DNA from: Candidatus Cloacimonadota bacterium
GTDB lineage: Bacteria; Cloacimonadota; Cloacimonadia; JGIOTU-2
Reading direction: 5' to 3'
Assembly (NCBI GenBank): GCA_016932035.1
Contig: JAFGDR010000040.1
Coordinates: 78,791-142,790 of the forward strand
Length of the DNA: 64,000 nucleotides
A program made the translations under genes and the position numbers. The notes beneath the pieces were generated by a model that was given only the letters and a program-made list of their open reading frames with translations, was not told the DNA's origin and did not search any database. Every line of letters starts with the position of its first letter. The first letter of the stretch is position 1. Shown in pieces: positions 13,590 through 38,098 of the stretch.

Positions 13590-13689
13590 TTGAAACTCCA
13601 GAAAGTTTATTCAAAAAAATTTGACAATAATTTGCCACAATTCAGTTTGCCTATAAATTATAGAAAAAACAACATTTGTGGAGATAGAT

Positions 13690-18660: not shown

Positions 18661-19830
18661 ATGAATATTCATGAATATCAAGCGAAACAGCTTTTAAAAA
18701 ATTACGGTGTGACAATCCCCCACGGCAAGATGGCCGAAACTCCAGAGCAAGCATTAGAGGCAGCACGGGATATCGACAGTCAAAAATGGGTGGTCAAAGC
18801 ACAGGTCCATGCAGGTGGTAGAGGAAAAGGCGGCGGTGTAAAAATCGCATCTTCGATTGAAGAGATTAACACCATTGCAGAGAACATGCTCGGCATGAAA
18901 TTAGTCACTCACCAAACAGGTCCAAAAGGGATACTCGTTCAGAAGATCTATATAGAAGAAGTCGCCCCTATAAAGAAAGAATATTATCTTGGATTGGTTC
19001 TTGACCGTGGATCAGAAATGCCCGTGATGATCGCTTCGACCGAAGGTGGCATGGAAATCGAGAAAGTTGCCGCAGAATCCCCGGAAAAGATCATCAAAGT
19101 CATCATCGATCCGCTGATCGGTTTTAGAAATTTCCATAGCAATGCATTGGCTCATGGTCTTGGACTGGATAAAGAACAAGCACGTTCTTTATCAAAATTC
19201 ACGAAAGCATTATACAAACTTTATAAAGAAAAAGATGCGAGTCTCATAGAGATCAATCCACTTGTGTTAAAATATGATAATACGTTCATAGCTCTGGATG
19301 CAAAGATCAACTTCGATGACAATGCTCTTTTCCGTCATCCAGATATCCTCGAGATGCGAGACCTTTCTGAGGAAGAACCTACAGAGTTGGAAGCAAGTAA
19401 TTTCAATCTGAACTACATTAAACTCGACGGAAACGTGGGCTGTATGGTCAACGGTGCAGGCCTTGCGATGTCTACTATGGACATCATAAAGATCAAAGGT
19501 GGAGAACCTGCGAATTTCCTCGATGTCGGTGGAGATGCATCAGCAGAAACGGTCGCAAAAGGTTTCGAAATCATCCTGAGAGATAAGAATGTAAAAGCGA
19601 TCTTTGTGAACATATTCGGTGGAATTGTCCGTTGTGACAGGATCGCCAATGGTATCCTCGATGCAGCAAAGAAAATAAATGTTGAAGTGCCAGTTGTGGT
19701 TCGACTTGATGGAACTAATGCAGAAATTGCTGCAGTTATCCTTAAAGAAGCACACATTTCAAACATCATCACTGCGTATGACCTCGCTGACGGTGCAGAA
19801 AAAGCAGTGAAAGCAGCTCAGGAGTTTTGA
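18661..19830 (+). CDS. sucC: Succinyl-CoA synthetase (ADP/GDP-forming), beta subunit
   Basis: 389 aa, the usual length. It opens [17 protein letters not shown], the standard SucC start. The ATP-grasp domain carries [26 protein letters not shown] and LIEINPLV. The C-terminal flavodoxin-like domain has [27 protein letters not shown] and [13 protein letters not shown]. It joins succinate and CoA using a nucleoside triphosphate, or runs in reverse to make one. TTGACA at 18600-18605 is a possible promoter element; no strong ribosome site is seen. It is the first gene of a long operon, with sucD starting three bases after its stop. It links fumarate reductase to 2-oxoglutarate synthase in the same operon. 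Confidence 0.96.
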
Positions 19831-19832
19831 TC

Positions 19833-20702
19833 ATGGGAATTCTCGTAGGCAAACATTCAAAAGTAATTGTTCAGGGCTTCACCGGAAAAGAAGCAACCTT
19901 CCACGCACAGCAATGCATCGATTACGGCACTCATATTGTCGGCGGTGTTACTCCCGGGAAGGGTGGACAGATCCATCTTGACAGACCGGTTTTCAGCACA
20001 GTTAAAGATGCAGTCGAACATACCGGAGCTGACACATCGCTTATCCTTGTTCCGCCTTCTTTTGCAGCAGATGCTATCATGGAAGCTGCTGATGCAGGCA
20101 TCAAAGTTATTGTCTGCATCTCTGAGGGAATCCCAACACAGGATGTCATGTACGCAAAAATGTATGTGACTAAAAAAGGTGCCGTTCTTATTGGACCGAA
20201 TTGTCCGGGCATCATCACTGCTGGTGAGGCAAAGATCGGCATTATGCCGGGAAATATTTTTAAGAAAGGTAATGTCGGCGTTATATCAAAATCCGGCACA
20301 CTTACCTATGAAGCTGCAAACCAGGTTGTTAAAGCTGGATTGGGTATCACCACTGCAATCGGCATAGGTGGTGATCCTATTATCGGATCAACATTTGTCG
20401 ATCTGCTCAGAAGGTTTGAAGAAGATCCCGAAACTCATGCTGTGGTTATCATCGGCGAAATTGGCGGTGACCTAGAGATCCAAGCAGCTCATTTTATAAA
20501 GGAACACATGAAAAAACCGGTTGTAGCTTTTATCGCAGGACAGACCGCTCCAAAAGGAAAAAGAATGGGACATGCAGGAGCAATCATTGCAGGCAGCAAA
20601 GGAACCGCTCAGGAAAAAATGTCCGCCCTCGAAAAAGTAGGTGTTCGTGTTTGTAAATCTCCAGCAGATGTTGGAATGGCAACCAAAGAAGTTTTATCAT
20701 AA
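19833..20702 (+). CDS. sucD: Succinyl-CoA synthetase, alpha subunit
   Basis: 289 aa from ATG 19833 (GGAG eight to ten bases upstream, inside the end of sucC; the TTG at 19827 is not needed). The CoA-binding Rossmann domain reads [12 protein letters not shown] and [18 protein letters not shown] and [10 protein letters not shown] follow, and the phosphohistidine loop GHAGAIIAG lies near residue 245. It works as a heterodimer or heterotetramer with SucC. It is nine bases upstream of the fumarase alpha gene. Confidence 0.96.
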
Positions 20703-20711
20703 GGAGTTTTC

Positions 20712-21557
20712 GTGAGAGAAATCAATGTTAATGAAATCATTCCTGTTGTAAGAAAATTGTGTATCGATGCCAATTACTATATCGGCGAAGATGTTCTCGA
20801 CAAGATCAAAGAGTTTTATGAGAAAGAAGAATCCCCGACAGCAAAAGAGGTGCTTTCCATCCTTCTTGAAAACTATGAACTTGCAGCAAAAGAAAAAATG
20901 CCATCATGCCAGGATACAGGTGTTGCTGTTGTATTTATCGAACTTGGTCAGGATGTTCACCTTGTTGGTGGAGATTTTTATGAAGCCATTCATGAAGGTG
21001 TTCGACAGGGTTACAAAGACGGATATCTGCGGAAATCTCTTGTTCATGATCCTATCATAGACCGGGTTAACACAAAAGATAATACACCAGCTCTCATCTA
21101 TACAGATATCGTTCCCGGTGATAAGATCAAGATCACTGTTGCACCAAAAGGTGGCGGATCTGAAAACATGAGTGAAGTTAAAATGATGAAGGCCGCTGAT
21201 GGCATCGAAGGTGTCGTCGATTTCGTGGTTGACCGTGTCCGTCGATCGGGCGGAAATCCCTGTCCACCAATCGTTGTTGGAGTTGGGCTTGGCGGCAATT
21301 TTGAGCAAAGTGCACTTCTTGCAAAAAAAGCTCTTTTGCGTCCTCTTAATGAAAAACACCCTGAAGATAAATGGTCTAAAATTGAAGAAGAAATACTGGA
21401 AAAAGTCAATAACCTTGGAATTGGACCTCAAGGATTTGGTGGAAGAACAACAGCTCTCGGTGTATCCATCATGCATAAACCCTGTCACATTGCATCGATG
21501 CCTGTTGCAGTAAACATTCAATGTCACGCTGCCCGTCATAAAAGCTCAGTTATATAA
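20712..21557 (+). CDS. Class I fumarate hydratase, alpha (N-terminal) subunit
   Basis: 281 aa from GTG 20712, with AAGGAG six bases upstream. It is the iron-sulfur half of a two-subunit class I fumarase. The cluster cysteines are visible in MPSCQDTGV (about residue 63), NPCPPIVVGVGLGG (about 182) and HKPCHIAS (about 259). NTKDNTPALIYTDI and APKGGGSENMS are also family signatures. It interconverts fumarate and malate with a labile [4Fe-4S] cluster, which suits anaerobic life. The partner beta subunit follows 12 bases later. Tartrate dehydratase is the main alternative within this family; the TCA neighbours favour fumarase. Confidence 0.92.
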   Translation: MREINVNEIIPVVRKLCIDANYYIGEDVLDKIKEFYEKEESPTAKEVLSILLENYELAAKEKMPSCQDTGVAVVFIELGQDVHLVGGDFYEAIHEGVRQGYKDGYLRKSLVHDPIIDRVNTKDNTPALIYTDIVPGDKIKITVAPKGGGSENMSEVKMMKAADGIEGVVDFVVDRVRRSGGNPCPPIVVGVGLGGNFEQSALLAKKALLRPLNEKHPEDKWSKIEEEILEKVNNLGIGPQGFGGRTTALGVSIMHKPCHIASMPVAVNIQCHAARHKSSVI

Positions 21558-21569
21558 GAAGGAGTACAC

Positions 21570-22124
21570 ATGGCACAAACGATAAAATTACAAACTCCTC
21601 TGACAGATGAAGATGTTTCCAAACTTTCTATTGGTGATAAAGTACTCATTTCCGGAACGATCTACACTGGACGTGATGCGGCACATAAACGGCTAGTCGA
21701 GCTTGTTGAAGCTGGCAAAGAACTACCTTTTGATATAAAGGGACAGATCATATATTACGTTGGACCAGCCCCAGCTCCTCCCGGAAAGCCGATCGGCTCT
21801 GCAGGTCCCACAACGAGTTACAGAATGGATCCCTATGCCCCCGTGTTGATGGATGTCGGTCTTAAAGGTATGATTGGAAAAGGTCCTCGCAGTCAATCAG
21901 TAATAGATTCAATGAAAAAGAACAAGGCAGTGTATTTGGCTGCTATCGGCGGTGCGGCAGTTGTTGTAGCAAAAGCTATCACAGATGCCAAAGTAATTGC
22001 TTATGATGATCTCGGCACTGAAGCGATTCGTGAACTCACAGTTGAAGATTTCCCGTGTATCGTAGCCAATGATATTTATGGAAATGACATTTATAAAGAA
22101 GGTGTAGAAAAGTATAAGAAGTGA
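21570..22124 (+). CDS. Class I fumarate hydratase, beta (C-terminal) subunit
   Basis: 184 aa. Family motifs are LSIGDKVLISGTIYTGRDAAH near the start, GPAPAPPGKPIGSAGPTT in the middle, and RMDPYAPVLMDVGLKGMIGKG (about 85-105) plus AAIGGAAVVVAK. It supplies the substrate-binding swivelling half of the enzyme. An AAGGAG site precedes it. The operon is interrupted after this gene by a small repeat-flanked four-helix-bundle gene before korD. Confidence 0.92.
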   Translation: MAQTIKLQTPLTDEDVSKLSIGDKVLISGTIYTGRDAAHKRLVELVEAGKELPFDIKGQIIYYVGPAPAPPGKPIGSAGPTTSYRMDPYAPVLMDVGLKGMIGKGPRSQSVIDSMKKNKAVYLAAIGGAAVVVAKAITDAKVIAYDDLGTEAIRELTVEDFPCIVANDIYGNDIYKEGVEKYKK

Positions 22125-22126
22125 AG

Positions 22127-22158
22127 CTTGAATTTGGAAACTTGAAATTTGATTCAAG
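22127..22158 (+). repeat. Left flank repeat of the four-helix-bundle gene
   Basis: CTTGAAT at 22127-22133 and ATTCAAG at 22152-22158 are inverted; between them lie GGAAACTTGAA and a second CTTGAA arm. The heptamer GGAAACT is the reverse complement of the unit repeated on the other side of the gene (22561-22592) up to phase, so the small gene is flanked by inverted copies. Confidence 0.5.
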
Positions 22159-22169
22159 TATAATTTATT

Positions 22170-22520
22170 ATGAAAGAAGTTTTTGAATTAGATGTATATA
22201 AATTATCAGAGGAGTTATCGGATTTGATCTGGTATGCCTACGATAACTGGTCAGATAAAGCAAAAATGACTTTTGGATATCAAATCATCAGAGCTGCTGA
22301 TAGCATAGCAGCAAATATTGCTGAAGGATATGGTAGATATACTCCAAGTGATAGAAAATTATTTTATCGATATGCAAGAGGTTCATTCGAAGAGACAAAA
22401 TGTTGGCCTCGAAAAGCCATAAGAAGAAAAATTATCACAGATGCAAATGTCATGAAATTTACTGAAATCATAAATGAACTTGGACCAAAACTTAATGCTT
22501 TTTTCAAGAGTACAAAATAA
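22170..22520 (+). CDS. Four-helix-bundle protein (23S rRNA intervening-sequence / S23-type)
   Basis: 116 aa. The pattern FELDVYKLSEELSDLIW, FGYQIIRAADSIAANIAEGYGR, FYRYARGSFEETKCW and INELGPKLNAF is that of the S23/IVP family, also related to the Avd accessory proteins of retroelements. Members are often encoded inside inserts in 23S rRNA genes or as free-standing genes; their function is unsettled. Here it sits between fumarase beta and korD in a metabolic operon, with GGAAACT-type repeats on both sides. No reverse transcriptase is nearby, so it is not a diversity-generating system. It has no strong ribosome site. Confidence 0.85.
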   Translation: MKEVFELDVYKLSEELSDLIWYAYDNWSDKAKMTFGYQIIRAADSIAANIAEGYGRYTPSDRKLFYRYARGSFEETKCWPRKAIRRKIITDANVMKFTEIINELGPKLNAFFKSTK

Positions 22521-22558
22521 TGAATAATATTAATCAGCAACAAATTTTTAAATCATCG

Positions 22559-22592
<34 letters not shown>

Positions 22593-22617
22593 AAACATCA
22601 TCCCCAAGGAGTTTTTA

Positions 22618-22878
22618 ATGAGATATTGGGAAAAACCTTTTGGGAAAGAAAAACCCAAAACAATATGCGGAGAGATCCACATCATTAGTGATCGATGCAA
22701 GGGTTGCTCCTTCTGTATCGAGTATTGTCCCCGTGATGTACTTGAACTTTCCACAGAGTTCAATCTCAAGGGATATCACCCTCCAGTTGTAGCAAAACCT
22801 GATCAATGTACGTTTTGCGGATTATGCGAAATGATCTGTCCGGATTTTGCAATATTTGTAACTGAGAAGGAGGAGTAG
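22618..22878 (+). CDS. korD: 2-oxoacid:ferredoxin oxidoreductase, delta (ferredoxin) subunit
   Basis: 86 aa. Two [4Fe-4S] motifs are CKGCSFCIEYCP (about residues 26-37) and CTFCGLCEMICP (about 63-74). This 8Fe ferredoxin-like subunit passes electrons from the TPP site of KorAB to free ferredoxin. AAGGAG precedes the ATG. Its TAG stop overlaps the GTG start of korA by one base. It is the first of korDABC. Confidence 0.93.
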   Translation: MRYWEKPFGKEKPKTICGEIHIISDRCKGCSFCIEYCPRDVLELSTEFNLKGYHPPVVAKPDQCTFCGLCEMICPDFAIFVTEKEE

Positions 22879-24035
22879 TGTTTCAAGAATCACGACTACA
22901 CGGCGAATTTTTTATGCAAGGTGATATTGCCTGTGCAGAAGGTGCACTGGCTGCAGGCTGCCGTTTTTTTGGCGGTTATCCCATTACTCCTGCTTCAGAG
23001 ATAGCTGAACGCATGGCTATGAGACTTCCGCTACTCAACGGTGTGTTCATACAATACGAAGATGAAATAGCCTCGATGGCTGGTATTCTGGGCGCTTCAT
23101 GGGCTGGTGTTAAATCAATGACCGCCACATCAGGTCCCGGTATTTCTCTTATGAATGAGAATATTGGTCTTGGAATGATGATGGAAGCTCCCTGTGTGGT
23201 CATTAATGTCCAAAGAGGTTCACCTTCAACTGGTCTTCCAACAACCTGGGGTCAATCCGATATGATGCAGGCACGCTGGGGTTCACACGGCGATTATGGC
23301 AGCATCTCTCTTGTACCAAACTCACCCCAGGAATTCTTCGACCTGACAGTTACTGCTTTCAATTTTGCTGAGAAGTACAGATTACCGGTTTTCATTCTGG
23401 CAGACGCCCTTGTTGGTCACATGACTGAGAAAGTGGTCATCCCCCCCGTTGAAGAACTAACAATCATCAATAGAAAATATACAACCAAGAAACCCGGAGA
23501 ATACCTTGCATACGATTATGGCAAGGATCTCGTTCCTGACTTTGCAAAAGCCGGTGACGGATACCGGTATCATACAACAGGTCTTACACATGATAGACGC
23601 GGCTATCCGGACATGACCGTTGAATGCCAGGAAGAACTTGTGCCCAGGCTTGTAAACAAAATCAAGAATAACATAAATGATATTTCTCTGACTGAAGAAT
23701 ATGATATTGAAGGTGCAGATGTTATAGTAATTTCCTATGGCATCACATCCCGAACGGTTCTTCCTTCAATCACCGCAGCAAAAGAAAAGGGCATAAAAGT
23801 TGGATATTTACGTTTGAAAACCGTATGGCCTTTCCCAGAAGAAAAGATACGCAAATTGTCCGGGAACGTTGCTGGTTTTGTGGTTCCCGAGATGAACCTT
23901 GGACAAATATCTCTGGAAGTTGAACGATGTGCATGCAACAATTCAAAAGTAAAGCTCGTTCCTCATCCCGGAGGTGGTATACATAAATTTGAAGATGTTC
24001 TGAAGGCAATCGAAGAGGTCGCACATGGCAAATAA
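22878..24035 (+). CDS. korA: 2-oxoglutarate:ferredoxin oxidoreductase, alpha subunit
   Basis: 385 aa from a GTG overlapping the korD stop, with GGAGG six bases upstream. Motifs: FMQGDIACAEGALAAG, FGGYPITPASEIAE, YEDEIASMAGILGASWAG and TATSGPGISLM in the pyrimidine-binding domain, then GHMTEKVV and a C-terminal ISYGITSRTV and LRLKTVWPFPEEKI domain. Gene order DABC next to sucCD and fumarase makes 2-oxoglutarate the likeliest substrate (succinyl-CoA + CO2 + reduced ferredoxin to 2-oxoglutarate, or reverse). Other 2-oxoacids cannot be excluded by sequence alone. Confidence 0.92.
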   Translation: MFQESRLHGEFFMQGDIACAEGALAAGCRFFGGYPITPASEIAERMAMRLPLLNGVFIQYEDEIASMAGILGASWAGVKSMTATSGPGISLMNENIGLGMMMEAPCVVINVQRGSPSTGLPTTWGQSDMMQARWGSHGDYGSISLVPNSPQEFFDLTVTAFNFAEKYRLPVFILADALVGHMTEKVVIPPVEELTIINRKYTTKKPGEYLAYDYGKDLVPDFAKAGDGYRYHTTGLTHDRRGYPDMTVECQEELVPRLVNKIKNNINDISLTEEYDIEGADVIVISYGITSRTVLPSITAAKEKGIKVGYLRLKTVWPFPEEKIRKLSGNVAGFVVPEMNLGQISLEVERCACNNSKVKLVPHPGGGIHKFEDVLKAIEEVAHGK

Positions 24036-24984
24036 TACAGCAAAACCCATTATAGAAGAAAAACCTCATCCAATGGAAGATCTCCTGAGGATGGACAGAA
24101 TGCCTCATATTTGGTGTTCAGGCTGCGGACTCGGCTCTGCAGTCACAACCTTTGTGGAGGGCTTAAAAAAAGCCGGTGTATCCTATGATAAAACAGCAAT
24201 CGTTTCAGGCATAGGTTGTACCGGTCGTGTTGCAGGCTATCTACGGCTTGATTCTTATCATACAACACACGGAAGAGCAATTCCTTTTGCAACTGGTTTG
24301 AAACTGGCAAATCGTGAATTAACCGTCGTTGTATTTTCCGGCGATGGTGACCTGTTTGCAATCGGTGGCAACCATCTGATACATGCAGCAAGAAGAAATG
24401 TTGATATTAATGTTATTTGTGTAAACAATTTTATATATGGTATGACCGGTGGGCAGAATGCACCTACCACTCCTCTCGGCGCTTATAGTTCCACCGCTCC
24501 TTACGGCAACTATGAAATGCCCTTCAATCTTGTGGGACTGGCAGCTGCTGCTGGAGCAAGCTATGTGGCCAGATGGACGACCATGCATGCACGCCGTTTA
24601 ACAGATTCTATCGCAAAAGCGGCTAATAAAAAAGGTTTCTGCTTTATCGAGATCGTTTCCCCATGTGCAACAGTCTTTGCACGAAAAAACAAGGGTGGTT
24701 CCGGGCTCGATCTTCTCAAAGAATTTCAGACACGAGCTATTATCGATCATGAAGCAGATCCCACACAAATACCTCTTAGCATGGATAATGAGATCGTTTG
24801 CGGTGAATTTGTTAATAAGGATAAACCTACTTTTTGGGAAAATGTTCAAACCGGAATTAAAGCAAAATTAGAAAAATTTTCAAACTGGGAGGAGCTGCAA
24901 AGCAATTCCACAAAAATTCCCCATAAAAAATCTGTAACCTATACATCCAGCAGAGATACTTACAATTCCAGGAGCAACACATGA
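24025..24984 (+). CDS. korB: 2-oxoglutarate:ferredoxin oxidoreductase, beta subunit
   Basis: 319 aa, overlapping korA by 11 bases. TPP/magnesium motif: FSGDGDLFAIGGNHLIHAARRN, near residues 95-115, then VICVNNFIYGMTGGQ. WCSGCGLGSA and SGIGCTGRVAGYL near the N-terminus are typical of the beta subunit. It holds thiamine diphosphate and forms the active site with KorA. The C-terminal 40 residues after residue 280 are an unconserved extension. Confidence 0.93.
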   Translation: MANNTAKPIIEEKPHPMEDLLRMDRMPHIWCSGCGLGSAVTTFVEGLKKAGVSYDKTAIVSGIGCTGRVAGYLRLDSYHTTHGRAIPFATGLKLANRELTVVVFSGDGDLFAIGGNHLIHAARRNVDINVICVNNFIYGMTGGQNAPTTPLGAYSSTAPYGNYEMPFNLVGLAAAAGASYVARWTTMHARRLTDSIAKAANKKGFCFIEIVSPCATVFARKNKGGSGLDLLKEFQTRAIIDHEADPTQIPLSMDNEIVCGEFVNKDKPTFWENVQTGIKAKLEKFSNWEELQSNSTKIPHKKSVTYTSSRDTYNSRSNT

Positions 24985-25523
24985 GTGAACTCAGAGTTAA
25001 GATATCAGGATTCGGCGGACAGGGGATCATACTATCTGCGTTTATTCTTGGGAAAGCAGCATCAATATATGACCAGCAATACTCCTCCATGACCCAAGCA
25101 TACGGACCGGAAGCACGTGGTGGTGCCTGTAGCTCGCAAGTCGTGATTTCCCCAAAAAGCGTTGAATATCCGTTGGTTGATACTGCAGATGTACTCCTTG
25201 CAATGTCGCAAGAAGGTTATGATACATTTCTCCCAATCCTAAAAAAGGGCGGCATTCTCTGCTATGATACTGACCTGGTTGAAAAGATGCAATCTCATAA
25301 AGACATAATCGCAAAAGGGATACCCGCTACTCGTCTCGCTGAAGAACTCGGCAAGAAGATCGTTGCAAACATTGTTATGCTCGGTTTTGCTACAAAACAG
25401 GCAAAGATCGCTACTCCCGAGGCAATGAAGGGAGCAATTACCGATTCGGTACCCAAAAAATTCACTGACCTGAACATGAAAGCATTTCAGGCAGGATATG
25501 ACTATGACGAGGATAAATCATGA
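24981..25523 (+). CDS. korC: 2-oxoglutarate:ferredoxin oxidoreductase, gamma subunit
   Basis: 180 aa, overlapping korB by four bases (ATGA). The typical gamma pattern is ISGFGGQGIILSAFILG near the start, then YGPEARGGACSSQVVIS and VLLAMSQEGYD. It completes the four-subunit enzyme and helps form the CoA site. The stop overlaps the hdrC start by four bases, so the Kor and Hdr genes are translationally coupled. Confidence 0.93.
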   Translation: MSELRVKISGFGGQGIILSAFILGKAASIYDQQYSSMTQAYGPEARGGACSSQVVISPKSVEYPLVDTADVLLAMSQEGYDTFLPILKKGGILCYDTDLVEKMQSHKDIIAKGIPATRLAEELGKKIVANIVMLGFATKQAKIATPEAMKGAITDSVPKKFTDLNMKAFQAGYDYDEDKS

Positions 25524-25927
25524 CATTAAAGATCACTCGCGAACGAATAAAAAATTCCCTAGTTGATAAAATTGAAGAAATTTCAGGGCAAAATGTTTTC
25601 GATTGCTACCAGTGCGGTATCTGTTCATCAGGCTGTCCTGTTACAGATTACATGGATTACCCTCCGAATCAGGTAATGCGTCTTGCACAATTTGGTTGCA
25701 TAGATGATATCCTCAACTCAAAAACCATCTGGATATGCTCGACGTGTCTGCAATGCTCGACGCGCTGTCCCAAAGGTATCGAGGTTGCCAAAGTTATGGA
25801 AGCACTCCGAACGATCAATCTGAGGCAACGTGAAGGAACCCTCAAACCGGAAGAACTCAAAACCAAAGAACTGAAAGATCTTCCGCAAATTGCGTTGGTT
25901 AGTGCGTTCCGTAAGCTTACAGGATAA
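25520..25927 (+). CDS. hdrC: Heterodisulfide reductase subunit C-like iron-sulfur protein
   Basis: 135 aa. Two [4Fe-4S] motifs: CYQCGICSSGCP (about 31-42) and CSTCLQCSTRCP (about 75-86), with PPNQVMRLAQFG between them, as in HdrC. In the Hdr-Mvh complex it carries electrons from HdrA to HdrB. The start overlaps korC by four bases, which ties this bifurcation module to the ferredoxin-using enzyme. There are 35 bases to hdrB. Confidence 0.92.
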   Translation: MTLKITRERIKNSLVDKIEEISGQNVFDCYQCGICSSGCPVTDYMDYPPNQVMRLAQFGCIDDILNSKTIWICSTCLQCSTRCPKGIEVAKVMEALRTINLRQREGTLKPEELKTKELKDLPQIALVSAFRKLTG

Positions 25928-25962
25928 ATTATTTGCATGAAAATTATTAAAGGAATCAACAT

Positions 25963-26841
25963 ATGAAACTTGGATATTTCCCCGGTTGTACTTTGAAAAC
26001 CAATGCCAAGCATTTTGAAGACTCTGCAATGGAAGTCATGAAAGTGCTTGGGCATCCCTTGGAAGAGATGGCAAACTGGATTTGTTGCGGTACCGTATTC
26101 TCTATGACGACAGACGATCTCATGCTCCAACTTGCTTCGATAAGAAATCTACTTCGTGCTGAAAATCAAGGTTATGATGAACTTGTTGCACTGTGCAGCA
26201 TGTGCTATAATACACTGAAAAGGGCTAAAGAATTTATTCTTAATGATGAGGAAAATCTACGAAAAGTAAATGACTTCATGTATAGAGAAGATTCCGCATT
26301 CAAGGGAACGACCGATGTGGTGCATCTTCTGAGTATATTGAAGGACAGAATTACGTTTGATGCAATACAAAAAAAGGTCACGAAACCTCTCAAAGATTTG
26401 AAGATCGGCGCATATTATGGCTGCCTTCTTGTTCGTCCGAAAGAACTTGCAATCGATGATTATGAAGATCCAATTATCATGGAAGAACTGGTAGATAAAC
26501 TTGGCGGTGAAGGTGTTGTATTTCCCTACCGGCTTGAATGCTGTGGAGCATATCAGACGATCACCGAAAAGGATGTGACGATAAAAAGAACGTATGAGAT
26601 CATCAATTCTGCTCGTGAAGCAGGATGTGAAGCTCTTATAACAAGCTGTCCATTATGTGCATTCAATCTCGATCAAAGACAAAAGGAAACATCTGAAGAA
26701 TTTTTAGAATTTTCAACCATGCCCGTATTTTATTTCACTGAACTCATGGCTATTGCATTAGGGGTGAAATGGAACAAGGAATGGAAGAAACTGCATTATG
26801 TCAATCCCGAACCCTTGCTAAAAGAAAAAGGTTTAATATAG
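25963..26841 (+). CDS. hdrB: Heterodisulfide reductase subunit B-like protein
   Basis: 292 aa. Both cysteine-rich CCG repeats are complete: FPGCTLK ... WICCGTV ... LCSMCYN, and YYGCLLV ... ECCGAY ... SCPLCAF. These bind the two noncubane [4Fe-4S] clusters that form the disulfide-reducing site in methanogen HdrB. Bacteria without coenzyme M/B often keep this gene for other acceptors. The fumarate reductase genes downstream suggest it hands electrons to that enzyme or to an unknown disulfide. Confidence 0.93.
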   Translation: MKLGYFPGCTLKTNAKHFEDSAMEVMKVLGHPLEEMANWICCGTVFSMTTDDLMLQLASIRNLLRAENQGYDELVALCSMCYNTLKRAKEFILNDEENLRKVNDFMYREDSAFKGTTDVVHLLSILKDRITFDAIQKKVTKPLKDLKIGAYYGCLLVRPKELAIDDYEDPIIMEELVDKLGGEGVVFPYRLECCGAYQTITEKDVTIKRTYEIINSAREAGCEALITSCPLCAFNLDQRQKETSEEFLEFSTMPVFYFTELMAIALGVKWNKEWKKLHYVNPEPLLKEKGLI

Positions 26842-26850
26842 AGGATTATA

Positions 26851-28806: not shown

Positions 28807-28838
28807 CTCGTAAAGATACATGTGGAGTAGAAGATCGC

Positions 28839-29255
28839 ATGAAAGATTTTGAACCAAAAATAGTATGTTTCTTATGCAAGTGGTGTACCTATTCCGGTGC
28901 CGATCTCGCTGGCACATCAAGAATGAAGTATCCGCCAAATGGTGTCGTGATCAAAACACTCTGTTCATCACGGGTTGATCCTCAACACGTAATGCTGGCT
29001 TTTAGCGAGGGATGCGACGGTGTGTTCATAGGTGGTTGTCATCCTGGTGATTGTCATTATCAGAGCGGTAACTATAAGACCAAACGAAGAGTTATTCTGC
29101 TAAAAAAGGTACTCGAACAGCTAGGTCTTAATACAAATCGGCTTCGTCTCGAATGGATTTCTGCAAGTGAAGGAAAGAAGTTTGCAGAAACCATGAAAGA
29201 ATTCACTGAAGAAATAAAAAAACTCGGTCCGATTCCAAAAATCGGCTGTAAATAA
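28839..29255 (+). CDS. mvhD: Hydrogenase delta subunit MvhD-like [2Fe-2S] protein
   Basis: 138 aa. Conserved cysteines FLCKWCTYSGAD, a lone Cys in IKTLCSSR, and GGCHPGDCHY define the MvhD family. The protein links the [NiFe] hydrogenase MvhAG to HdrA. In this operon it lies beside hdrA, while mvhG and mvhA are about 2.6 kb further on, with the fumarate reductase genes in between. A 98-base gap follows before frdB, with a GGAGGAG site at its end. Confidence 0.93.
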   Translation: MKDFEPKIVCFLCKWCTYSGADLAGTSRMKYPPNGVVIKTLCSSRVDPQHVMLAFSEGCDGVFIGGCHPGDCHYQSGNYKTKRRVILLKKVLEQLGLNTNRLRLEWISASEGKKFAETMKEFTEEIKKLGPIPKIGCK

Positions 29256-29353
29256 ATATTCTGAAAGCCACCGAAAGGAATCAAAAATGTTATTTCCTGA
29301 TTTACTAGATATTTTCAAAATATTTTTAAGTATAAATAATAGGAGGAGTCATA

Positions 29354-30040
29354 ATGCCTAAGAACGTTCCCATGGTGAAAGTATATATTTTAGGGGAAGG
29401 TTTTGATGTACCAGAGGGCTCGACCATAATCGGTGCTCTTGAGTATGCAGGATTCCAGCTGACAGTTGGTGTTGGTTGCCGCGAAGGTTTCTGCGGAGCT
29501 TGTGCGACACTGTACAGAGAAAAAGGCGACTATAAGCTGCAAGCGGGTCTTGCATGCCAGACGGTTGTCACCGATGGTATGAACATAGCTCAAATACCTT
29601 TTGTTCCTGCAGAAAAACCAATCTACGATATCAATAAAGTCGATCCTGATATCGAAGCATTCAAAACACTCTATCCGACACTTTTCAGGTGTGTTGGATG
29701 TAATACCTGTACAAAGATATGTCCTCAGGATATTGAGGTTATGGATTATGTCCAGGCACTCATTCGTGGAGATGTCGCCAGAGCAGCAGACCTTTCTTTT
29801 GACTGTATTCGATGCGGACTCTGTGCATTGCGTTGTCCGGCTGAAATCGTACAATATAATGCAGCAATTCTTGCTCGTCGCCTCACAGGCAAATATCTTC
29901 TTCCAAAGAGTCCCGATCTTGAAGCCAGGGTAAAGGAAATTGCTGAAGGACTCTATAATAATGAGCTTGAAAAACTCACCACCTCAAACACAGAGACCAT
30001 TAAAAAGCGATATTATGATCGTGAAATCAAAACCGGATAA
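29354..30040 (+). CDS. frdB: Fumarate reductase / succinate dehydrogenase iron-sulfur subunit (soluble type)
   Basis: 228 aa. N-terminal plant-type [2Fe-2S] domain CREGFCGAC with a fourth Cys about 20 residues on (GLACQT), then a helical ferredoxin domain with CVGCNTCTKICP and CIRCGLCALRCP. Classic FrdB binds [2Fe-2S], [4Fe-4S] and [3Fe-4S]; here both C-terminal motifs look complete for [4Fe-4S]. It lacks the HdrB-like CCG region that makes methanogen TfrB about twice as long. That part exists as a separate hdrB gene upstream. No cytochrome b or membrane-anchor gene is near, so the enzyme should be soluble and not quinone-linked. Confidence 0.87.
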   Translation: MPKNVPMVKVYILGEGFDVPEGSTIIGALEYAGFQLTVGVGCREGFCGACATLYREKGDYKLQAGLACQTVVTDGMNIAQIPFVPAEKPIYDINKVDPDIEAFKTLYPTLFRCVGCNTCTKICPQDIEVMDYVQALIRGDVARAADLSFDCIRCGLCALRCPAEIVQYNAAILARRLTGKYLLPKSPDLEARVKEIAEGLYNNELEKLTTSNTETIKKRYYDREIKTG

Positions 30041-30065
30041 ATTTTAAACATTTAGGAGAATAGAT

Positions 30066-31733
30066 ATGTATCCAGAATATATGCGCAAATCGATCAGAAA
30101 GGTCGAAAAGACGCGACCCGAGAGACTGAAACTTGCACGTTCAGGCAAAGCAATCTTCCCTATGATGTCCGCAGAAGAACGACAGGAAGTGCTTGATAAA
30201 TTTCATCCTGACTATAAGAAAGATGCTCGAAAAAAAGTGCGAATAGGACCAAATAAAGGGGATAATATCACAACAGAAGTTGTTGATCAACTCGAAGCTT
30301 ATTCAAGAATTAAGCCTGATTATTTCGACTTAAAGAATCCTGACTATGAAACAGATGTCCTCGTTATCGGTGCCGGCTCAGCAGGTTTTTCCGCATCCCT
30401 TCTTGCAGCGGAAAACGGAGCTGATGTTCTGCTTGTAACAAAACTGAGAATTGGTGACTCTAATTCAATGATGGCGCAGGGTGGTATTCAGGCATCCGTT
30501 CGACCTGATGATAATCCCGTACTCCACTATCTCGATGTTATGGGTGGCGGACACTTTGACAATATCCCAGAGCTCGTTAAAGCTCTTGTCGCTGAAGCTC
30601 CAGATGCGATACATTGGCTTCAGGATCTCGGGGTTATGTTCGACAGAAATGAAGATGGAACAATGCTCACGAAACCCGGTGGCGGAACATGCAGACCGCG
30701 TATGCATTCTGCTCGTGACTATACCGGTGCAGCTATCTGTAGGACAATCCGTGATGAGGTGCTGAATCGTCCAGATAAGATAAAGATTTTGGAACATCAA
30801 CCAGCAGTCGAACTTATTAAAGATGAAAATGGGAATGTCGCCGGCGCTGTGTTGTATCATTTAGAAAACAGGAATTATTACACGGTTAAAGCTAAAGCGA
30901 TCATTATTGCAACCGGTGGCTTTGGACGTCTGCACGTTAAAGGATTTGAAACGACCAATCATTACGGTGCTACGGCAGACGGACTTGTCGTTGCTTATCG
31001 CGCAGGTGCAAAACTTTTATATATGGATTCAGTCCAATACCATCCAACCGGTGCTGTGTATCCACCGCAAATTCTCGGATTCCTCTGCACAGAAAAACTG
31101 CGAGGTCTCGGTGCTCAACCCGTAAATAAGAATGGTGAATTATTCGTTCATCCACTCGAACCTCGTGATATTGAGGCGTCTGCATTCATTCGTGAATGCA
31201 CAGAACGTGATCTTGGTATTCAGACACCGGGAGGTCAAGTCGGTATCTGGTTGGATTCTCCACTGATCGAAAAGCTGAGTGGACCCGGTACGATCAAGAA
31301 GAACCTTCCGGCTATGCTTAGACAGTTCGAACGTTTTGATGTTGATATCACACAAGATCCAATACTGGTATATCCAACTCTCCATTATCAAAACGGCGGT
31401 ATCGAAATTAATGATCACTGCGAAACAAACGTGAATGGTCTTTTTGTTGCTGGAGAAGCTGCTGGAGGCATCCATGGACGCAATCGTCTGATGGGAAATT
31501 CTCAGCTTGATCTGATTGTATTTGGGCGACGTGCCGGTATTTACGCAGCGGAATATGCTAAAAAAGCGAAGACCGGAAAACTAACACTCTCGCATATCAC
31601 TGAATATGACCAGGAAGTGAAAAAAATCGGTATTGACAGAAAACACATCTCACCGATGGTTCTTCCTGATTATACCCCTGCTTCTGTGAAAGAGCGTCAA
31701 TACACAACTGAATATCAAGGAACTCTAAGATAA
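30066..31733 (+). CDS. frdA: Fumarate reductase / succinate dehydrogenase flavoprotein subunit
   Basis: 555 aa. FAD Rossmann motif VIGAGSAGFSASLLAAENG (about 100-118), the active-site region HSARDYTGAAI, IIATGGFGRL, YHPTGA, EPRDIEASAFIRECTERD, and the C-terminal HYQNGGIEINDHCETNVNGLFVAGEAAGGIHGRNRLMGN pattern (positions about 437-475), which carries the conserved arginine and His. The N-terminal ~85 residues are an extra helical lead. It interconverts fumarate and succinate. It is 25 bases after frdB and sits inside the Hdr-Mvh gene group, so its electrons probably come from or go to that complex. Confidence 0.9.
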   Translation: MYPEYMRKSIRKVEKTRPERLKLARSGKAIFPMMSAEERQEVLDKFHPDYKKDARKKVRIGPNKGDNITTEVVDQLEAYSRIKPDYFDLKNPDYETDVLVIGAGSAGFSASLLAAENGADVLLVTKLRIGDSNSMMAQGGIQASVRPDDNPVLHYLDVMGGGHFDNIPELVKALVAEAPDAIHWLQDLGVMFDRNEDGTMLTKPGGGTCRPRMHSARDYTGAAICRTIRDEVLNRPDKIKILEHQPAVELIKDENGNVAGAVLYHLENRNYYTVKAKAIIIATGGFGRLHVKGFETTNHYGATADGLVVAYRAGAKLLYMDSVQYHPTGAVYPPQILGFLCTEKLRGLGAQPVNKNGELFVHPLEPRDIEASAFIRECTERDLGIQTPGGQVGIWLDSPLIEKLSGPGTIKKNLPAMLRQFERFDVDITQDPILVYPTLHYQNGGIEINDHCETNVNGLFVAGEAAGGIHGRNRLMGNSQLDLIVFGRRAGIYAAEYAKKAKTGKLTLSHITEYDQEVKKIGIDRKHISPMVLPDYTPASVKERQYTTEYQGTLR

Positions 31734-31828
31734 TTTCTAATGTATAATTAGATTAGTATTTTTATGATTTATAAATTTGAGTTATGTTCAATCTACGTTA
31801 ATTCGTGGTTAGTAACCCTGGAGGTTTA

Positions 31829-32842
31829 ATGGCAAAACCGAAAGTTGCTTTTTATTGGTGTGCATCCTGTGGAGGATGCGAAGAAGCGATTGTTGATCTG
31901 CATGAAGATATCTTGAAAGTAGCAGAGCTCGTTGATATCGTGTTCTGGCCTTGTGCAATGGATTTCAAGACCAATGACGTCAAAAATATGCAGGACAATG
32001 AAATAAATGTTTGTTTTATTAATGGAGCGATCCGAACAGATGAACAGGTAGAGATGGCGCATCTATTACGTAAAAAAGCTCAGATCATTGTTTCTTTTGG
32101 TTCATGCTCGCAGCTTGGAGGAATACCTGGTCTTGCCAACTTCTGGGATAAAGAATCGATCTTTGCATCATCCTATGGTGGCAGATGCCCTTCAGTTAAT
32201 AATCCTGATGGTGTTGTACCACAAGAAATCTCTGAAGTGCCTGAAGGCGAACTAACCCTTCCAGCATTCCACAACACAGTAAAAACGACTGATCAGGTTA
32301 TCGATGTTGATTATTATCTTCCCGGCTGTTCTCCTGCTCCCTACCTCACTATGCGTGCGATCAATACAATTCTATCTGGTGATCTACCTCCAAAAGGAAC
32401 CGTACTTGCACCGAATAAAGCACTCTGCGAAGTATGCTCAAGAAATGAAACAAAGCCGGAGAAACTATCCATAGATAGAGTAAATCGTGTTTCATTGGTA
32501 GATGTTGATCCTGAAAAATGCTTCCTAGCACAAGGTATTATCTGCATGGGACCAGTCACACGCTCAGGATGTAACGGAGAAGCAGATGGGCGTTGTGTTG
32601 CCGCCAATATGCCGTGCAGAGGTTGTTATGGACCAACAACAGAAGTTCACGATGTCGGCGCCAAGATGATCGCAGCTCTCGCTTCGGTCGTTGGACTCGA
32701 TGGCGAAGAAAACATGAGTGAAACTGCTGTTCAAAAATTACTCGATCAAATCGTTGATCCTGCAGGCACGTTTTACCGATTCTCACTTGCAAAATCCTAT
32801 TTCCGCAGGAAGATTATGACTGATCCAAAAGAGGAGAAATAA
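31829..32842 (+). CDS. mvhG: [NiFe]-hydrogenase small subunit (MvhG-like)
   Basis: 337 aa from ATG 31829 (GGAGG just upstream; the GTG at 31805 is less likely). The N-terminus KVAFYWCASCGGCEEAIVDL holds the proximal-cluster CxxC. FGSCSQLGGIPG and YYLPGCSPAP supply further ligands; the C-terminal cysteines in ALCEVCSRN, KCFLAQGIICMGPVTRSGCNG and CVAANMPCRGCYG bind the other clusters. There is no Tat signal, so the enzyme is cytoplasmic, as expected for an Hdr-coupled group 3c hydrogenase. A 95-base gap separates it from frdA. Confidence 0.92.
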   Translation: MAKPKVAFYWCASCGGCEEAIVDLHEDILKVAELVDIVFWPCAMDFKTNDVKNMQDNEINVCFINGAIRTDEQVEMAHLLRKKAQIIVSFGSCSQLGGIPGLANFWDKESIFASSYGGRCPSVNNPDGVVPQEISEVPEGELTLPAFHNTVKTTDQVIDVDYYLPGCSPAPYLTMRAINTILSGDLPPKGTVLAPNKALCEVCSRNETKPEKLSIDRVNRVSLVDVDPEKCFLAQGIICMGPVTRSGCNGEADGRCVAANMPCRGCYGPTTEVHDVGAKMIAALASVVGLDGEENMSETAVQKLLDQIVDPAGTFYRFSLAKSYFRRKIMTDPKEEK

Positions 32843-32848
32843 CCAATC

Positions 32849-34309
32849 ATGGGTACAAAAGTTACAATAGATCCAATCACCAGACTGGAAGGTCATGGTA
32901 AGATAGAAATATTTTTAAATGATGAAGGCAATGTTGATAATGCATACCTTCAAATACCTGAATTAAAGGGATTCGAACAGTTTTGTATCGACCGTCCTGT
33001 CGAGGAACTTCCTCGTATTACACCACGAATTTGCGGCGTATGCCCCATGGCTCATCACATGGCAGCCACAAAAACCGTCGATGCTGTCTATCATGTGCAG
33101 CCAACTGAAACAGCAAAAAAACTCCGCCAGCTTGTGTATGATTGCTACATTTACGAAGATCACATGCTTCACTTCTTTTTTCTTGGTGGTCCAGACTTCG
33201 TTGTTACACCATCAGCACCGGCAAAGGAACGAAATATCCTTGGAGTGATTGCAAAAGTCGGACTTGAGATTGGCACCCGGGTTATCAAGAACCGCAGACA
33301 GATTCGAAATATTGTCCAATACCTCTCAGGAAGGATCATTCATCCTGTAGGAGGACTCCCGGGCGGTGTTTCAAAAGGACTCACTGAAGAAAAAAGACAG
33401 GAGTTTTTGAAAGTTGCAATTGAAGCTCGTGATTTTGCAAAAGAAAGTATCGAGATTTTCAATAAAATTGTGCTGGGAAATAATGCCTATGTCGATCTTG
33501 TAGTCGGTGATATTTACAAACACAAGACCTATTACATGGGTTTGGTTGATGAAAATAATAAAGTTAATTTCTACGATGGCAAAGTTCGTGTTGTCGATCC
33601 CGATGGGAAAGAATTTGTGAAATTCGGACCAGACGAATACCTTAAACAGATCGCAGAGCACGTCGAGCCCTGGAGTTATATGAAATTCCCCTTCCTCAAA
33701 ACAATTGGCTGGAAGGGCTTCAAGGAAGGTAAACAAAACGGCATATACCGCGTCGCACCTCTTGCTCGTCTGAATGTTTCTGAAGGTATGGCTACACCTA
33801 TGGCTCAGGAAGAGTACGATCGCATGTATGAAATCCTTGGCGGAAAACCGGCTCATAATACGCTGGCATTCCATTGGGCACGTTTGATCGAAGCTCTGTA
33901 TGCTTCAGAACACATCGTAGAATTACTCGAAGATAAATCAATTACCTCTCCCGACATCAGAAATATTCCAACAGAAGTTCCAACTGAAGGTGTCGGCATC
34001 GTTGAAGCTGCACGAGGAACGCTCATCCATCATTATAAAACTGATGATCATGGCATGGTAAAAGCAGTGAACCTGATCGTTGCAACAGTTGGCAACTCGG
34101 CAGCAATGTCACTTTCCATTGCAAAAGCTGCAAAAGCACTTATCAAGAATGGTAAGGTTGATGACGGCTTATTGAATATGGTCGAAATGGCATTTCGCGC
34201 CTACGATCCGTGTATGGCATGTGCTACTCATTCATTACCCGGTTCTACTCCCCTTATTATAAATATCAATCAAGATAATTCGGTTATAAAAACAATCCGA
34301 AGAGATTGA
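32849..34309 (+). CDS. mvhA: [NiFe]-hydrogenase large subunit (MvhA-like)
   Basis: 486 aa. Both active-site motifs are intact: RICGVCPMAHH (about 61-71) and DPCMACATH near the C-terminus. The ~22 residues after ATH (SLPGSTPLI...) would be cut off by a maturation protease, whose gene follows immediately. Other family phrases: TRLEGHGKIEIF, HPVGGLPGGVSKGL and GVGIVEAARGTLIHHY. It oxidises H2 or reduces protons and feeds HdrA through MvhD. A group 3c assignment is inferred from the Hdr context. Confidence 0.94.
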   Translation: MGTKVTIDPITRLEGHGKIEIFLNDEGNVDNAYLQIPELKGFEQFCIDRPVEELPRITPRICGVCPMAHHMAATKTVDAVYHVQPTETAKKLRQLVYDCYIYEDHMLHFFFLGGPDFVVTPSAPAKERNILGVIAKVGLEIGTRVIKNRRQIRNIVQYLSGRIIHPVGGLPGGVSKGLTEEKRQEFLKVAIEARDFAKESIEIFNKIVLGNNAYVDLVVGDIYKHKTYYMGLVDENNKVNFYDGKVRVVDPDGKEFVKFGPDEYLKQIAEHVEPWSYMKFPFLKTIGWKGFKEGKQNGIYRVAPLARLNVSEGMATPMAQEEYDRMYEILGGKPAHNTLAFHWARLIEALYASEHIVELLEDKSITSPDIRNIPTEVPTEGVGIVEAARGTLIHHYKTDDHGMVKAVNLIVATVGNSAAMSLSIAKAAKALIKNGKVDDGLLNMVEMAFRAYDPCMACATHSLPGSTPLIININQDNSVIKTIRRD

Positions 34310-34311
34310 AC

Positions 34312-34773
34312 GTGAAAACGCTCGTTCTTGGACTTGGCAACACAATCATGTCTGATGATGGTGTTGGGATTTTCATAGCACGCAGAATAAAGGAACAATT
34401 ACCAGAAATCGATGTCATCGAAGCAAGTGCAGCAGGTTTCCGCGTTATCGACGAAATCATTGGATATGATACATTGATCCTGATCGACTCGATCAAAACA
34501 AAAAACGGAAAGCCCGGCAACTATTACAAACTCGGAATTGAAGAATTCAAAACAACCCTTCACCATAGCTCTCCTCACGACATGGATATGTTCTCTGCGC
34601 TTGAACTGATGAAAAAGCACGATGCTGATCTCCCGGATGAAATAGTCATCTATGCAGTTGAAGTCGAAGACACCTTGAGCTATTCAGAGCAATGCACAAA
34701 AAATGTTGCTGCTGCTATTCCAAAATTGACCTCAATCATAATCGAAGAGCAATTTCCAGACAGCAAAATTTGA
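34312..34773 (+). CDS. Hydrogenase maturation protease (HyaD/HycI family)
   Basis: 153 aa from GTG 34312 (the TTG at 34306 overlaps the mvhA stop). The start KTLVLGLGNTIMSDDGVG is the family signature with the conserved Asp that senses nickel, followed by VIEASAAGFRVIDEI with the usual Gly/Asp pocket and SPHDMDMFSALEL, giving the His ligand. It removes the C-terminal extension of MvhA once nickel is in place. It is the last gene of the operon. The hyp accessory genes are not in the window. Confidence 0.9.
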   Translation: MKTLVLGLGNTIMSDDGVGIFIARRIKEQLPEIDVIEASAAGFRVIDEIIGYDTLILIDSIKTKNGKPGNYYKLGIEEFKTTLHHSSPHDMDMFSALELMKKHDADLPDEIVIYAVEVEDTLSYSEQCTKNVAAAIPKLTSIIIEEQFPDSKI

Positions 34774-34808: not shown

Positions 34809-34884
34809 GGGGCTATAGCTCAGCTGGGAGAGCATTTGTCTGGCAGACAAAGGGTCACGGGTTCGAGTCCCGTTAGCTCCACCA
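34809..34884 (+). tRNA. tRNA-Ala (anticodon GGC)
   Basis: Full cloverleaf with encoded CCA: acceptor GGGGCTA/TAGCTCC, D-arm GCTC/GAGC, anticodon stem TTTGT/ACAAA with loop CTGGCAG (anticodon GGC), T-arm ACGGG/CCCGT with TTCGAGT loop. It lies 35 bases downstream of the hydrogenase operon. Its 3' end abuts the hairpin that opens the GIY-YIG element. Confidence 0.97.
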
Positions 34885-38078: not shown

Positions 38079-38098
38079 CAAGCCCTTATCGAGAATTT

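What the first reader, a model, noticed from the sequence alone, without database searches (positions are those of the whole stretch)
18661..34773. One gene cluster joins the malate-to-2-oxoglutarate enzymes to a complete HdrABC-MvhADG bifurcation module
sucCD, fumarase, korDABC, hdrCBA, mvhD, frdBA, mvhGA and the hydrogenase protease are consecutive, with start-stop overlaps tying korC to hdrC. All cofactor motifs I can read are intact. The set contains each consecutive step from malate to 2-oxoglutarate, plus an H2-driven flavin bifurcator. A working model is: H2 electrons are split, the high-potential half reduces fumarate and the low-potential half reduces ferredoxin, which KorABCD spends on 2-oxoglutarate synthesis. 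Hdr-Mvh with heterodisulfide is known from methanogens; coupling to fumarate in bacteria would be new as far as I can judge from memory. In a syntroph it might run the other way.
Basis: partly seen in the sequence, partly recalled or inferred. Interest (0 to 1): 0.85.

Follow-up and report, generated by a model that had tools for sequence, protein, structure and literature searches.

The report
Hydrogen-linked fumarate reductase operon
A bacterium of the uncultured phylum Cloacimonadota carries, in one operon, a hydrogenase, an electron-splitting (HdrABC) module, a soluble fumarate reductase and the enzymes from malate to 2-oxoglutarate; it very probably uses hydrogen to drive this part of a CO2-fixing reverse Krebs cycle, but essentially the same cluster was published in 2021, and the electron-splitting step is still untested in the laboratory.

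Summary
In detail: 18 genes (18661-34773), gaps of at most 98 bases, encode sucCD, two-part fumarase, korDABC, hdrCBA, mvhD, frdBA, mvhGA and a hydrogenase protease; checked cofactor motifs are intact. One unmentioned four-helix gene lies between fumarase and korD. The working model is partly supported. For it: FrdA is the genome's only full-length FrdA/SdhA/NadB homologue and HdrB its only CCG protein; no membrane anchor or menaquinone genes were found; frdBA lies beside hdr genes across many phyla while the donor module (H2, NADH, others) changes repeatedly; FrdB and HdrB co-occur in relatives (35/36 versus 10/88). FrdB lacks a thiol site, which argues against a thiol shuttle and for direct HdrB-FrdB transfer. 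The novelty claim fails: this cluster and its H2-driven reverse-TCA role were published for Ca. Celaenobacter (PMC8542988), NADH-driven equivalents earlier (PMC6315080, PMC7282089). The genome also has ATP-citrate lyase, aconitase and IDH, so the cycle is probably complete. Reverse operation is not favoured: forward is exergonic except near 1 Pa H2 with extreme metabolite ratios, and the covalent-FAD His is replaced by Asn. No biochemistry of an H2-Hdr-Frd reaction was found in the library searched.

The parts
18661..19830 (+). sucC, succinate-CoA ligase beta
   Evidence: NF001913 578 bits, above cut-off 370
19827..20702 (+). sucD, succinate-CoA ligase alpha (start codon uncertain: TTG 19827 or ATG 19833)
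   Evidence: NF004230 436 bits, above cut-off
20712..21557 (+). class I fumarase, alpha part
   Evidence: NF004885 418 bits, above cut-off
21570..22124 (+). class I fumarase, beta part
   Evidence: NF005310 285 bits, above cut-off
22170..22520 (+). four-helix-bundle ORF inserted between fumarase and korD; probably not part of the pathway
   Evidence: TIGR02436 79.7 bits; absent at this site in congeners
22618..22878 (+). korD, two-[4Fe-4S] ferredoxin-like delta subunit
   Evidence: sequence reading and synteny
22878..24035 (+). korA, 2-oxoacid:ferredoxin oxidoreductase alpha
   Evidence: NF006412 555 bits, above cut-off
24025..24984 (+). korB, beta subunit (TPP)
   Evidence: best match 2-oxoglutarate Fd oxidoreductase beta NF007207, 249 bits, below its cut-off 364
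24981..25523 (+). korC, gamma subunit
   Evidence: NF006323 194 bits, below its cut-off 235
25520..25927 (+). hdrC, two [4Fe-4S] clusters
   Evidence: TIGR03290 76 bits; 8 ligand Cys in 66/66 relatives
25963..26841 (+). hdrB, two CCG (noncubane cluster) motifs
   Evidence: TIGR03288 167 bits; 10 ligand Cys conserved in all relatives; only CCG protein of the genome
26851..28806 (+). hdrA, FAD bifurcation subunit
   Evidence: closest solved relative 5odc_A, 701 bits over residues 3-640
28839..29255 (+). mvhD, [2Fe-2S] link between hydrogenase and HdrA
   Evidence: 8rvu_F 188 bits, 5odc_D 185 bits
29354..30040 (+). frdB, one [2Fe-2S] and two [4Fe-4S] clusters, no CCG domain
   Evidence: 12 Cys conserved in 113-114 of 114 relatives; TfrB model only 40 of 385 bits
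30066..31733 (+). frdA, soluble fumarate reductase flavoprotein with a ~90-residue N-terminal extension (HPDY...GPNKG)
   Evidence: PF00890 254 bits; H326, T342, E343, R367, H440, R474 invariant in 114 relatives; fold matches E. coli FrdA
31805..32842 (+). mvhG, hydrogenase small subunit
   Evidence: 5odc_E 214 bits
32849..34309 (+). mvhA, [NiFe] hydrogenase large subunit (group 3c type)
   Evidence: 5odc_F 417 bits; NF041785 VhuA 414 bits
34306..34773 (+). hydrogenase maturation protease
   Evidence: TIGR00072 105 bits, above cut-off 47

Best explanation
The operon encodes a soluble, quinone-free HdrABC-MvhADG-FrdAB system that oxidises H2, splits the electrons at the FAD of HdrA, sends the high-potential half through HdrC/HdrB and FrdB to FrdA (fumarate to succinate) and the low-potential half to ferredoxin, which KorABCD spends on carboxylating succinyl-CoA to 2-oxoglutarate. 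SucCD and fumarase supply the other steps. It runs reductively as the middle arc of a probably complete reverse TCA cycle. Shown here: gene content, motifs, conservation, co-occurrence, absence of a detectable quinone route. Inferred: complex formation, bifurcation, direct HdrB-FrdB transfer, direction.
For: FrdA is the only full-length FrdA/SdhA/NadB homologue and HdrB the only CCG-domain protein found in a 95%-complete genome. No Sdh cytochrome anchor, MenD or MqnA/D match, so Frd most likely needs a soluble donor. frdBA is within 9.5 kb of hdrA/B/C on the same strand in 51/64 named loci and 20/25 relatives with enough flank; four relatives without local hdr have HdrB elsewhere. Within the class, FrdB-positive genomes have CCG in 35/36 versus 10/88 FrdB-negative (phylogeny not corrected). 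On the FrdA tree the H2 module label changes at least 12 times, and donor types need 30 changes: the recurring element is Hdr-Frd. Ten HdrB ligands, eight HdrC and twelve FrdB cysteines are conserved. FrdB ends in two full four-Cys motifs rather than the three-Cys [3Fe-4S] site of quinone enzymes (the latter from general knowledge). The forward reaction is exergonic: -70 kJ/mol at 1 bar H2 and about -24 at 10 Pa with Fd at -500 mV. AclAB, aconitase and IDH form a cluster elsewhere.
Against: No biochemical or expression data. Both noncubane CCG sites of HdrB are strictly conserved, which would be odd if HdrB were only a wire: an unknown disulfide substrate is not excluded. Some relatives have kor-frdBA-sucCD-fum without adjacent hdr (L043, L045, L046, L056), and 13/64 named loci show no hdr nearby. 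The genome is 95% complete and in 66 contigs, so absences are provisional. Synteny in a pathway operon can reflect shared regulation without a complex. The FrdB model had low confidence, and no complex could be modelled.
Confidence: 0.62

Rival explanations
1. Thiol shuttle, as implied in PMC8542988: Mvh-Hdr reduces a disulfide (CoM-S-S-CoB or a bacterial analogue) and a thiol:fumarate reductase regenerates it; no direct Hdr-Frd contact.
For: HdrB keeps both CCG catalytic cluster sites in all relatives; methanogen TfrAB works this way (general knowledge); the published figure legend includes CoM and CoB.
Against: FrdB is 228 residues and lacks the C-terminal CCG thiol site that TfrB has (40 versus 385 bits); HdrB is the only CCG protein found in the genome, so no second site to oxidise the thiols was found.
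Confidence: 0.13
2. Co-located but uncoupled: Mvh-Hdr makes reduced ferredoxin with another high-potential acceptor, FrdAB is fed by another soluble donor, and the operon only co-regulates reverse-TCA genes.
For: Some clusters keep kor-frdBA-sucCD-fum with hdr elsewhere; 13/64 named loci lack nearby hdr.
Against: Those Cloacimonadota still encode HdrB elsewhere; frdBA is adjacent to hdr in many clusters without TCA genes and with changing donor modules.
Confidence: 0.15
3. Reverse operation: succinate oxidation and reduced ferredoxin are confurcated to H2 in syntrophic propionate or amino-acid oxidation.
For: Methylmalonyl-CoA mutase is encoded; Cloacimonadota are candidate syntrophs (PMC13082233).
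Against: Reverse is endergonic at all conditions computed except about 1 Pa H2 with succinate/fumarate 1000 and Fd at -500 mV; the covalent-FAD His is replaced by invariant Asn133, and loss of that His in E. coli FrdA impairs succinate oxidation (from memory); ATP-citrate lyase suggests reductive use.
Confidence: 0.08

Closest known systems
Ca. Celaenobacter H2-driven reverse-TCA cluster, Ace Lake Cloacimonadota (PMC8542988, 2021)
   Same: Same phylum; cluster with TFR, OGOR, fumarase, succinyl-CoA synthetase, Mvh group 3c and Hdr; ACL with aconitase and IDH elsewhere; group 4 hydrogenase with Mrp as in the window genome.
   Different: That paper calls the enzyme thiol:fumarate reductase and describes heterodisulfide reduction; here FrdB is shown to lack the thiol site and no second CCG protein was found.
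flxABCD-hdrABC-korABCD-tfrAB cluster of tubeworm symbionts and Thioflavicoccus mobilis (PMC6315080, 2019)
   Same: Hdr interspersed with Kor and fumarate reductase; proposed to shuttle electrons directly to both.
   Different: NADH (Flx) donor instead of H2 (Mvh).
Pseudoclostridium thermosuccinogenes succinate operon (PMC7282089; preprint 10.20944/preprints201912.0288.v1, known here only through its citation)
   Same: Fumarase, Hdr complex and fumarate reductase in one operon; fumarate reduction proposed to drive ferredoxin reduction.
   Different: Flx/NADH donor; fermentative succinate production; kor and sucCD not listed in the operon.
Methanogen HdrABC-MvhAGD (PDB 5odc)
   Same: All six subunits have clear relatives here (hdrC).
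   Different: The natural acceptor there is CoM-S-S-CoB; here FrdAB is encoded with it.
Methanogen thiol:fumarate reductase TfrAB
   Same: FrdA-type flavoprotein; TfrA is the best NCBIfam match of FrdA (335 bits).
   Different: Below both curated cut-offs; FrdB lacks the CCG half; FrdA has an N-terminal extension outside the TfrA match.

Membership tests
HdrABC-MvhADG bifurcating complex | HdrA with FAD site and all cluster cysteines | tested here: met
   701 bits to 5odc_A, residues 3-640; cysteines conserved in relatives
HdrABC-MvhADG bifurcating complex | HdrB with two CCG motifs, HdrC with two [4Fe-4S] | tested here: met
HdrABC-MvhADG bifurcating complex | MvhA L1 (ICGxCxxxH) and L2 (AYDPCccCATH) motifs, MvhD and MvhG | tested here: met
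   Motifs as given in PMC6085437; window ICGVCPMAH and AYDPCMACATH
HdrABC-MvhADG bifurcating complex | Coupled reduction of ferredoxin and a high-potential acceptor | not testable with these tools
   needs purified enzyme
Thiol:fumarate reductase TfrAB | TfrB with C-terminal CCG thiol-oxidising domain | tested here: not met
   FrdB 228 aa, NF004898 40 of 385 bits; only CCG protein found in genome is HdrB
Thiol:fumarate reductase TfrAB | TfrA above curated cut-off | tested here: not met
   335 of 718 bits
Membrane complex II (QFR/SQR) | Cytochrome b anchor | tested here: not met
   no PF01127 in genome; control rings in 7 of 14 genomes
Membrane complex II (QFR/SQR) | Covalent-FAD histidine and three-Cys [3Fe-4S] site | tested here: not met
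   Asn133 in 114/114; two full four-Cys motifs in FrdB
SdhE-type quinone-linked fumarate reductase (MFR) | SdhE CCG anchor above cut-off and a quinone | tested here: not met
   HdrB 162 of 500 bits to NF042965; no MenD or MqnA/D
L-aspartate oxidase NadB | Above nadB cut-off, works without an Fe-S partner | tested here: not met
   278 of 452 bits; frdB beside frdA in 79/80 named loci
Flx-Hdr-Frd (NADH-driven) system | Flx donor subunits in the cluster | tested here: not met
   no flx genes in the window operon; mvhGA instead
Flx-Hdr-Frd (NADH-driven) system | Same FrdBA family | tested here: inconclusive
   The same FrdA family sits with flx-like genes in Clostridium lacusfryxellense and in deltaproteobacterial MAGs; P. 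thermosuccinogenes itself was not compared

The most novel reading that the evidence does not exclude
FrdAB is the direct high-potential acceptor of an H2-driven HdrABC bifurcation complex (no thiol carrier, no quinone), the first such enzyme, and belongs to a widespread modular family in bacteria and archaea in which one Hdr-Frd core is plugged into H2, NADH or other donors.
Probability: 0.55. Interest if true: 0.72.

Novelty: new member of a known kind. Interest (0 to 1): 0.5.

Why it matters
If right, one soluble complex would pay for two hard reductive steps of the reverse TCA cycle with H2: it uses the large drop from H2 to fumarate, normally harvested by a membrane chain, to make the ferredoxin that 2-oxoglutarate synthase needs. 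It would explain how quinone-less anaerobes reduce fumarate.

Tried and rejected
L-aspartate oxidase and membrane fumarate reductase for FrdA (family cut-offs, partner gene, missing anchor). Loss of frdBA in congener G006 as counter-evidence: its contig simply ends after mvhD. AlphaFold of FrdB was too weak to use (mean pLDDT 66); the FrdA model confirms the FrdA/SdhA fold but not the role of the N-terminal extension. A direct paper on an H2-Hdr-Frd enzyme was not found, but the library holds only open-licence papers. A 674-residue ORF next to some kor-frd clusters was set aside as UvrB, unrelated (identified by eye only).
Full report
Observation. Searches confirm the gene run 18661-34773 on the + strand: sucCD, two-subunit class I fumarase, korDABC, hdrCBA, mvhD, frdBA, mvhGA and a [NiFe] hydrogenase protease. 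Gaps are at most 98 bases; sucC-sucD, korB-korC, korC-hdrC and mvhA-protease overlap by 4 bases. A tRNA-Ala follows the operon.

Identity of the parts. HdrA, HdrB, MvhD, MvhG and MvhA find the methanogen HdrABC-MvhAGD structures or close relatives as best solved matches. None of the Hdr or Mvh proteins passes the mostly archaeal curated cut-offs, as expected for bacterial relatives. FrdA belongs to the FrdA/SdhA/NadB family (PF00890; fold), passes no curated equivalog cut-off among those shown, and has a conserved N-terminal extension of about 90 residues with HPDY and GPNKG motifs (H47, P48, D49 in at least 112 of 114 relatives). Residues H326, T342, E343, R367, H440 and R474 are invariant in 114 relatives; their catalytic roles are assigned from knowledge of E. 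coli FrdA. In the alignment to M. smegmatis Sdh1 the covalent-FAD histidine falls on Asn133, invariant in the family. FrdB has twelve conserved cysteines: one [2Fe-2S] and two complete four-Cys motifs, no CCG domain.

Whole-genome context. The window's genome (2.44 Mb, 95.3% complete, 0.3% contamination) has no other full-length FrdA-type flavoprotein, no other CCG protein, no succinate dehydrogenase cytochrome, no MenD and no MqnA/D. It has a second, complex-I-like group 4 hydrogenase beside Mrp-like genes, a membrane pyrophosphatase, Rnf/Nqr-type subunits at two places, methylmalonyl-CoA mutase, and a cluster of ATP-citrate lyase (both subunits), aconitase and monomeric isocitrate dehydrogenase. 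Malate dehydrogenase was not searched. Together with the window operon this nearly completes a reverse TCA cycle. With a soluble FrdAB and no detectable quinone route, a soluble electron donor is the simplest reading.

Comparative evidence. frdB accompanies frdA in 79 of 80. Among loci with at least 5 kb on a side, hdrA, hdrB or hdrC lies within 9.5 kb on the same strand in 51/64 named and 20/25 relatives. Donor modules differ: mvhGA (as here; also Neomarinimicrobiota, Edwardsbacteria, Thermoplasmata and others), FlxABC-like genes (Clostridia and others), FrhB-like proteins. On the FrdA tree the H2 label needs at least 12 changes and all five labels together 30 (quick tree, labels depend on contig length). 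In the class, FrdB-positive genomes have a CCG protein in 35/36 against 10/88 FrdB-negative (counted; Fisher p about 1e-20, without correction for relatedness). Of the ten exceptions, six (G006, G007, G008, G101, G115, G116) have contigs that end where frdBA would be expected. Four relatives with frdBA but no local hdr carry HdrB on another contig.

Mechanism. Best reading: H2 oxidised at MvhA, electrons via MvhG and MvhD to HdrA, bifurcation at FAD, low-potential electrons to ferredoxin and KorABCD, high-potential electrons via HdrC/HdrB to FrdB and FrdA. The forward reaction 2 H2 + fumarate + Fd(ox) to succinate + Fd(red) is -70 kJ/mol at 1 bar H2 and -24 kJ/mol at 10 Pa (1e-4 bar) with Fd at -500 mV and equal succinate and fumarate; it turns endergonic only at about 1 Pa with succinate/fumarate of 1000. 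So the reductive direction is expected. The thiol shuttle implied in earlier work lacks a second CCG site; yet HdrB keeps both noncubane sites in all relatives, which I cannot fully explain by direct transfer alone.

Literature. PMC8542988 reports in Ca. Celaenobacter a cluster with TFR, OGOR, fumarase, succinyl-CoA synthetase, Mvh and Hdr, with ACL, aconitase and IDH elsewhere, and infers an H2-driven reverse TCA cycle. PMC6315080 and PMC7282089 made equivalent proposals with NADH as donor. PMC13082233 finds that digester Cloacimonadota lack SucCD and succinate dehydrogenase, which fits the absence of this FrdB from family f3, if f3 is that digester family (inference).

Verdict. Real, well conserved, and very probably functional as a unit; already described as a gene cluster. 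What is added here: FrdB has no thiol site, HdrB and FrdA are the only members of their families found in the genome, no quinone route is detectable, and the Hdr-Frd pair is a recurring module with exchangeable donors.

Noticed in passing
window 22170-22520; L034 about 7500-7793; L191 between hdrC and hdrB: A four-helix-bundle gene (TIGR02436) sits between fumB and korD in the window, with short repeats on both sides (GTTTCCAG repeats downstream); congeners have a diverged copy between hdrC and hdrB instead, or remnants. It looks like a mobile gene that settles in gaps of this operon.
   Followed up: partly
G000 contig C8, L185 6769-14159: ATP-citrate lyase (two subunits), aconitase and monomeric isocitrate dehydrogenase in one cluster.
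   Followed up: yes
G000 contig C31, L186: Group 4 (complex-I-like) hydrogenase with Mrp-like genes, and a membrane pyrophosphatase nearby.
   Followed up: partly
L190 (contig C40 upstream of the window): A second, diverged four-subunit 2-oxoacid:ferredoxin oxidoreductase operon on the same contig.
   Followed up: no
L039, L041, L061: In some Cloacimonadota frdBA is followed by a GlcD-type FAD oxidase (PF02913/PF01565, lactate/glycolate type) and further Hdr/MvhD-like genes, in L041 also PEP carboxykinase.
   Followed up: partly
L057, L058: Two Cloacimonadota carry a different FrdA type that groups with WOR-3 and Aminicenantes sequences on the tree, suggesting horizontal transfer.
   Followed up: no
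window 8476-10533, 13678-16185, 17042-18460, 35346-38081: Several secreted proteins with Por_Secre_tail sorting domains, including an M14 carboxypeptidase, flank the operon.
   Followed up: no
window 34809-34884: tRNA-Ala (GGC) directly after the operon, the only tRNA in the window.
   Followed up: no
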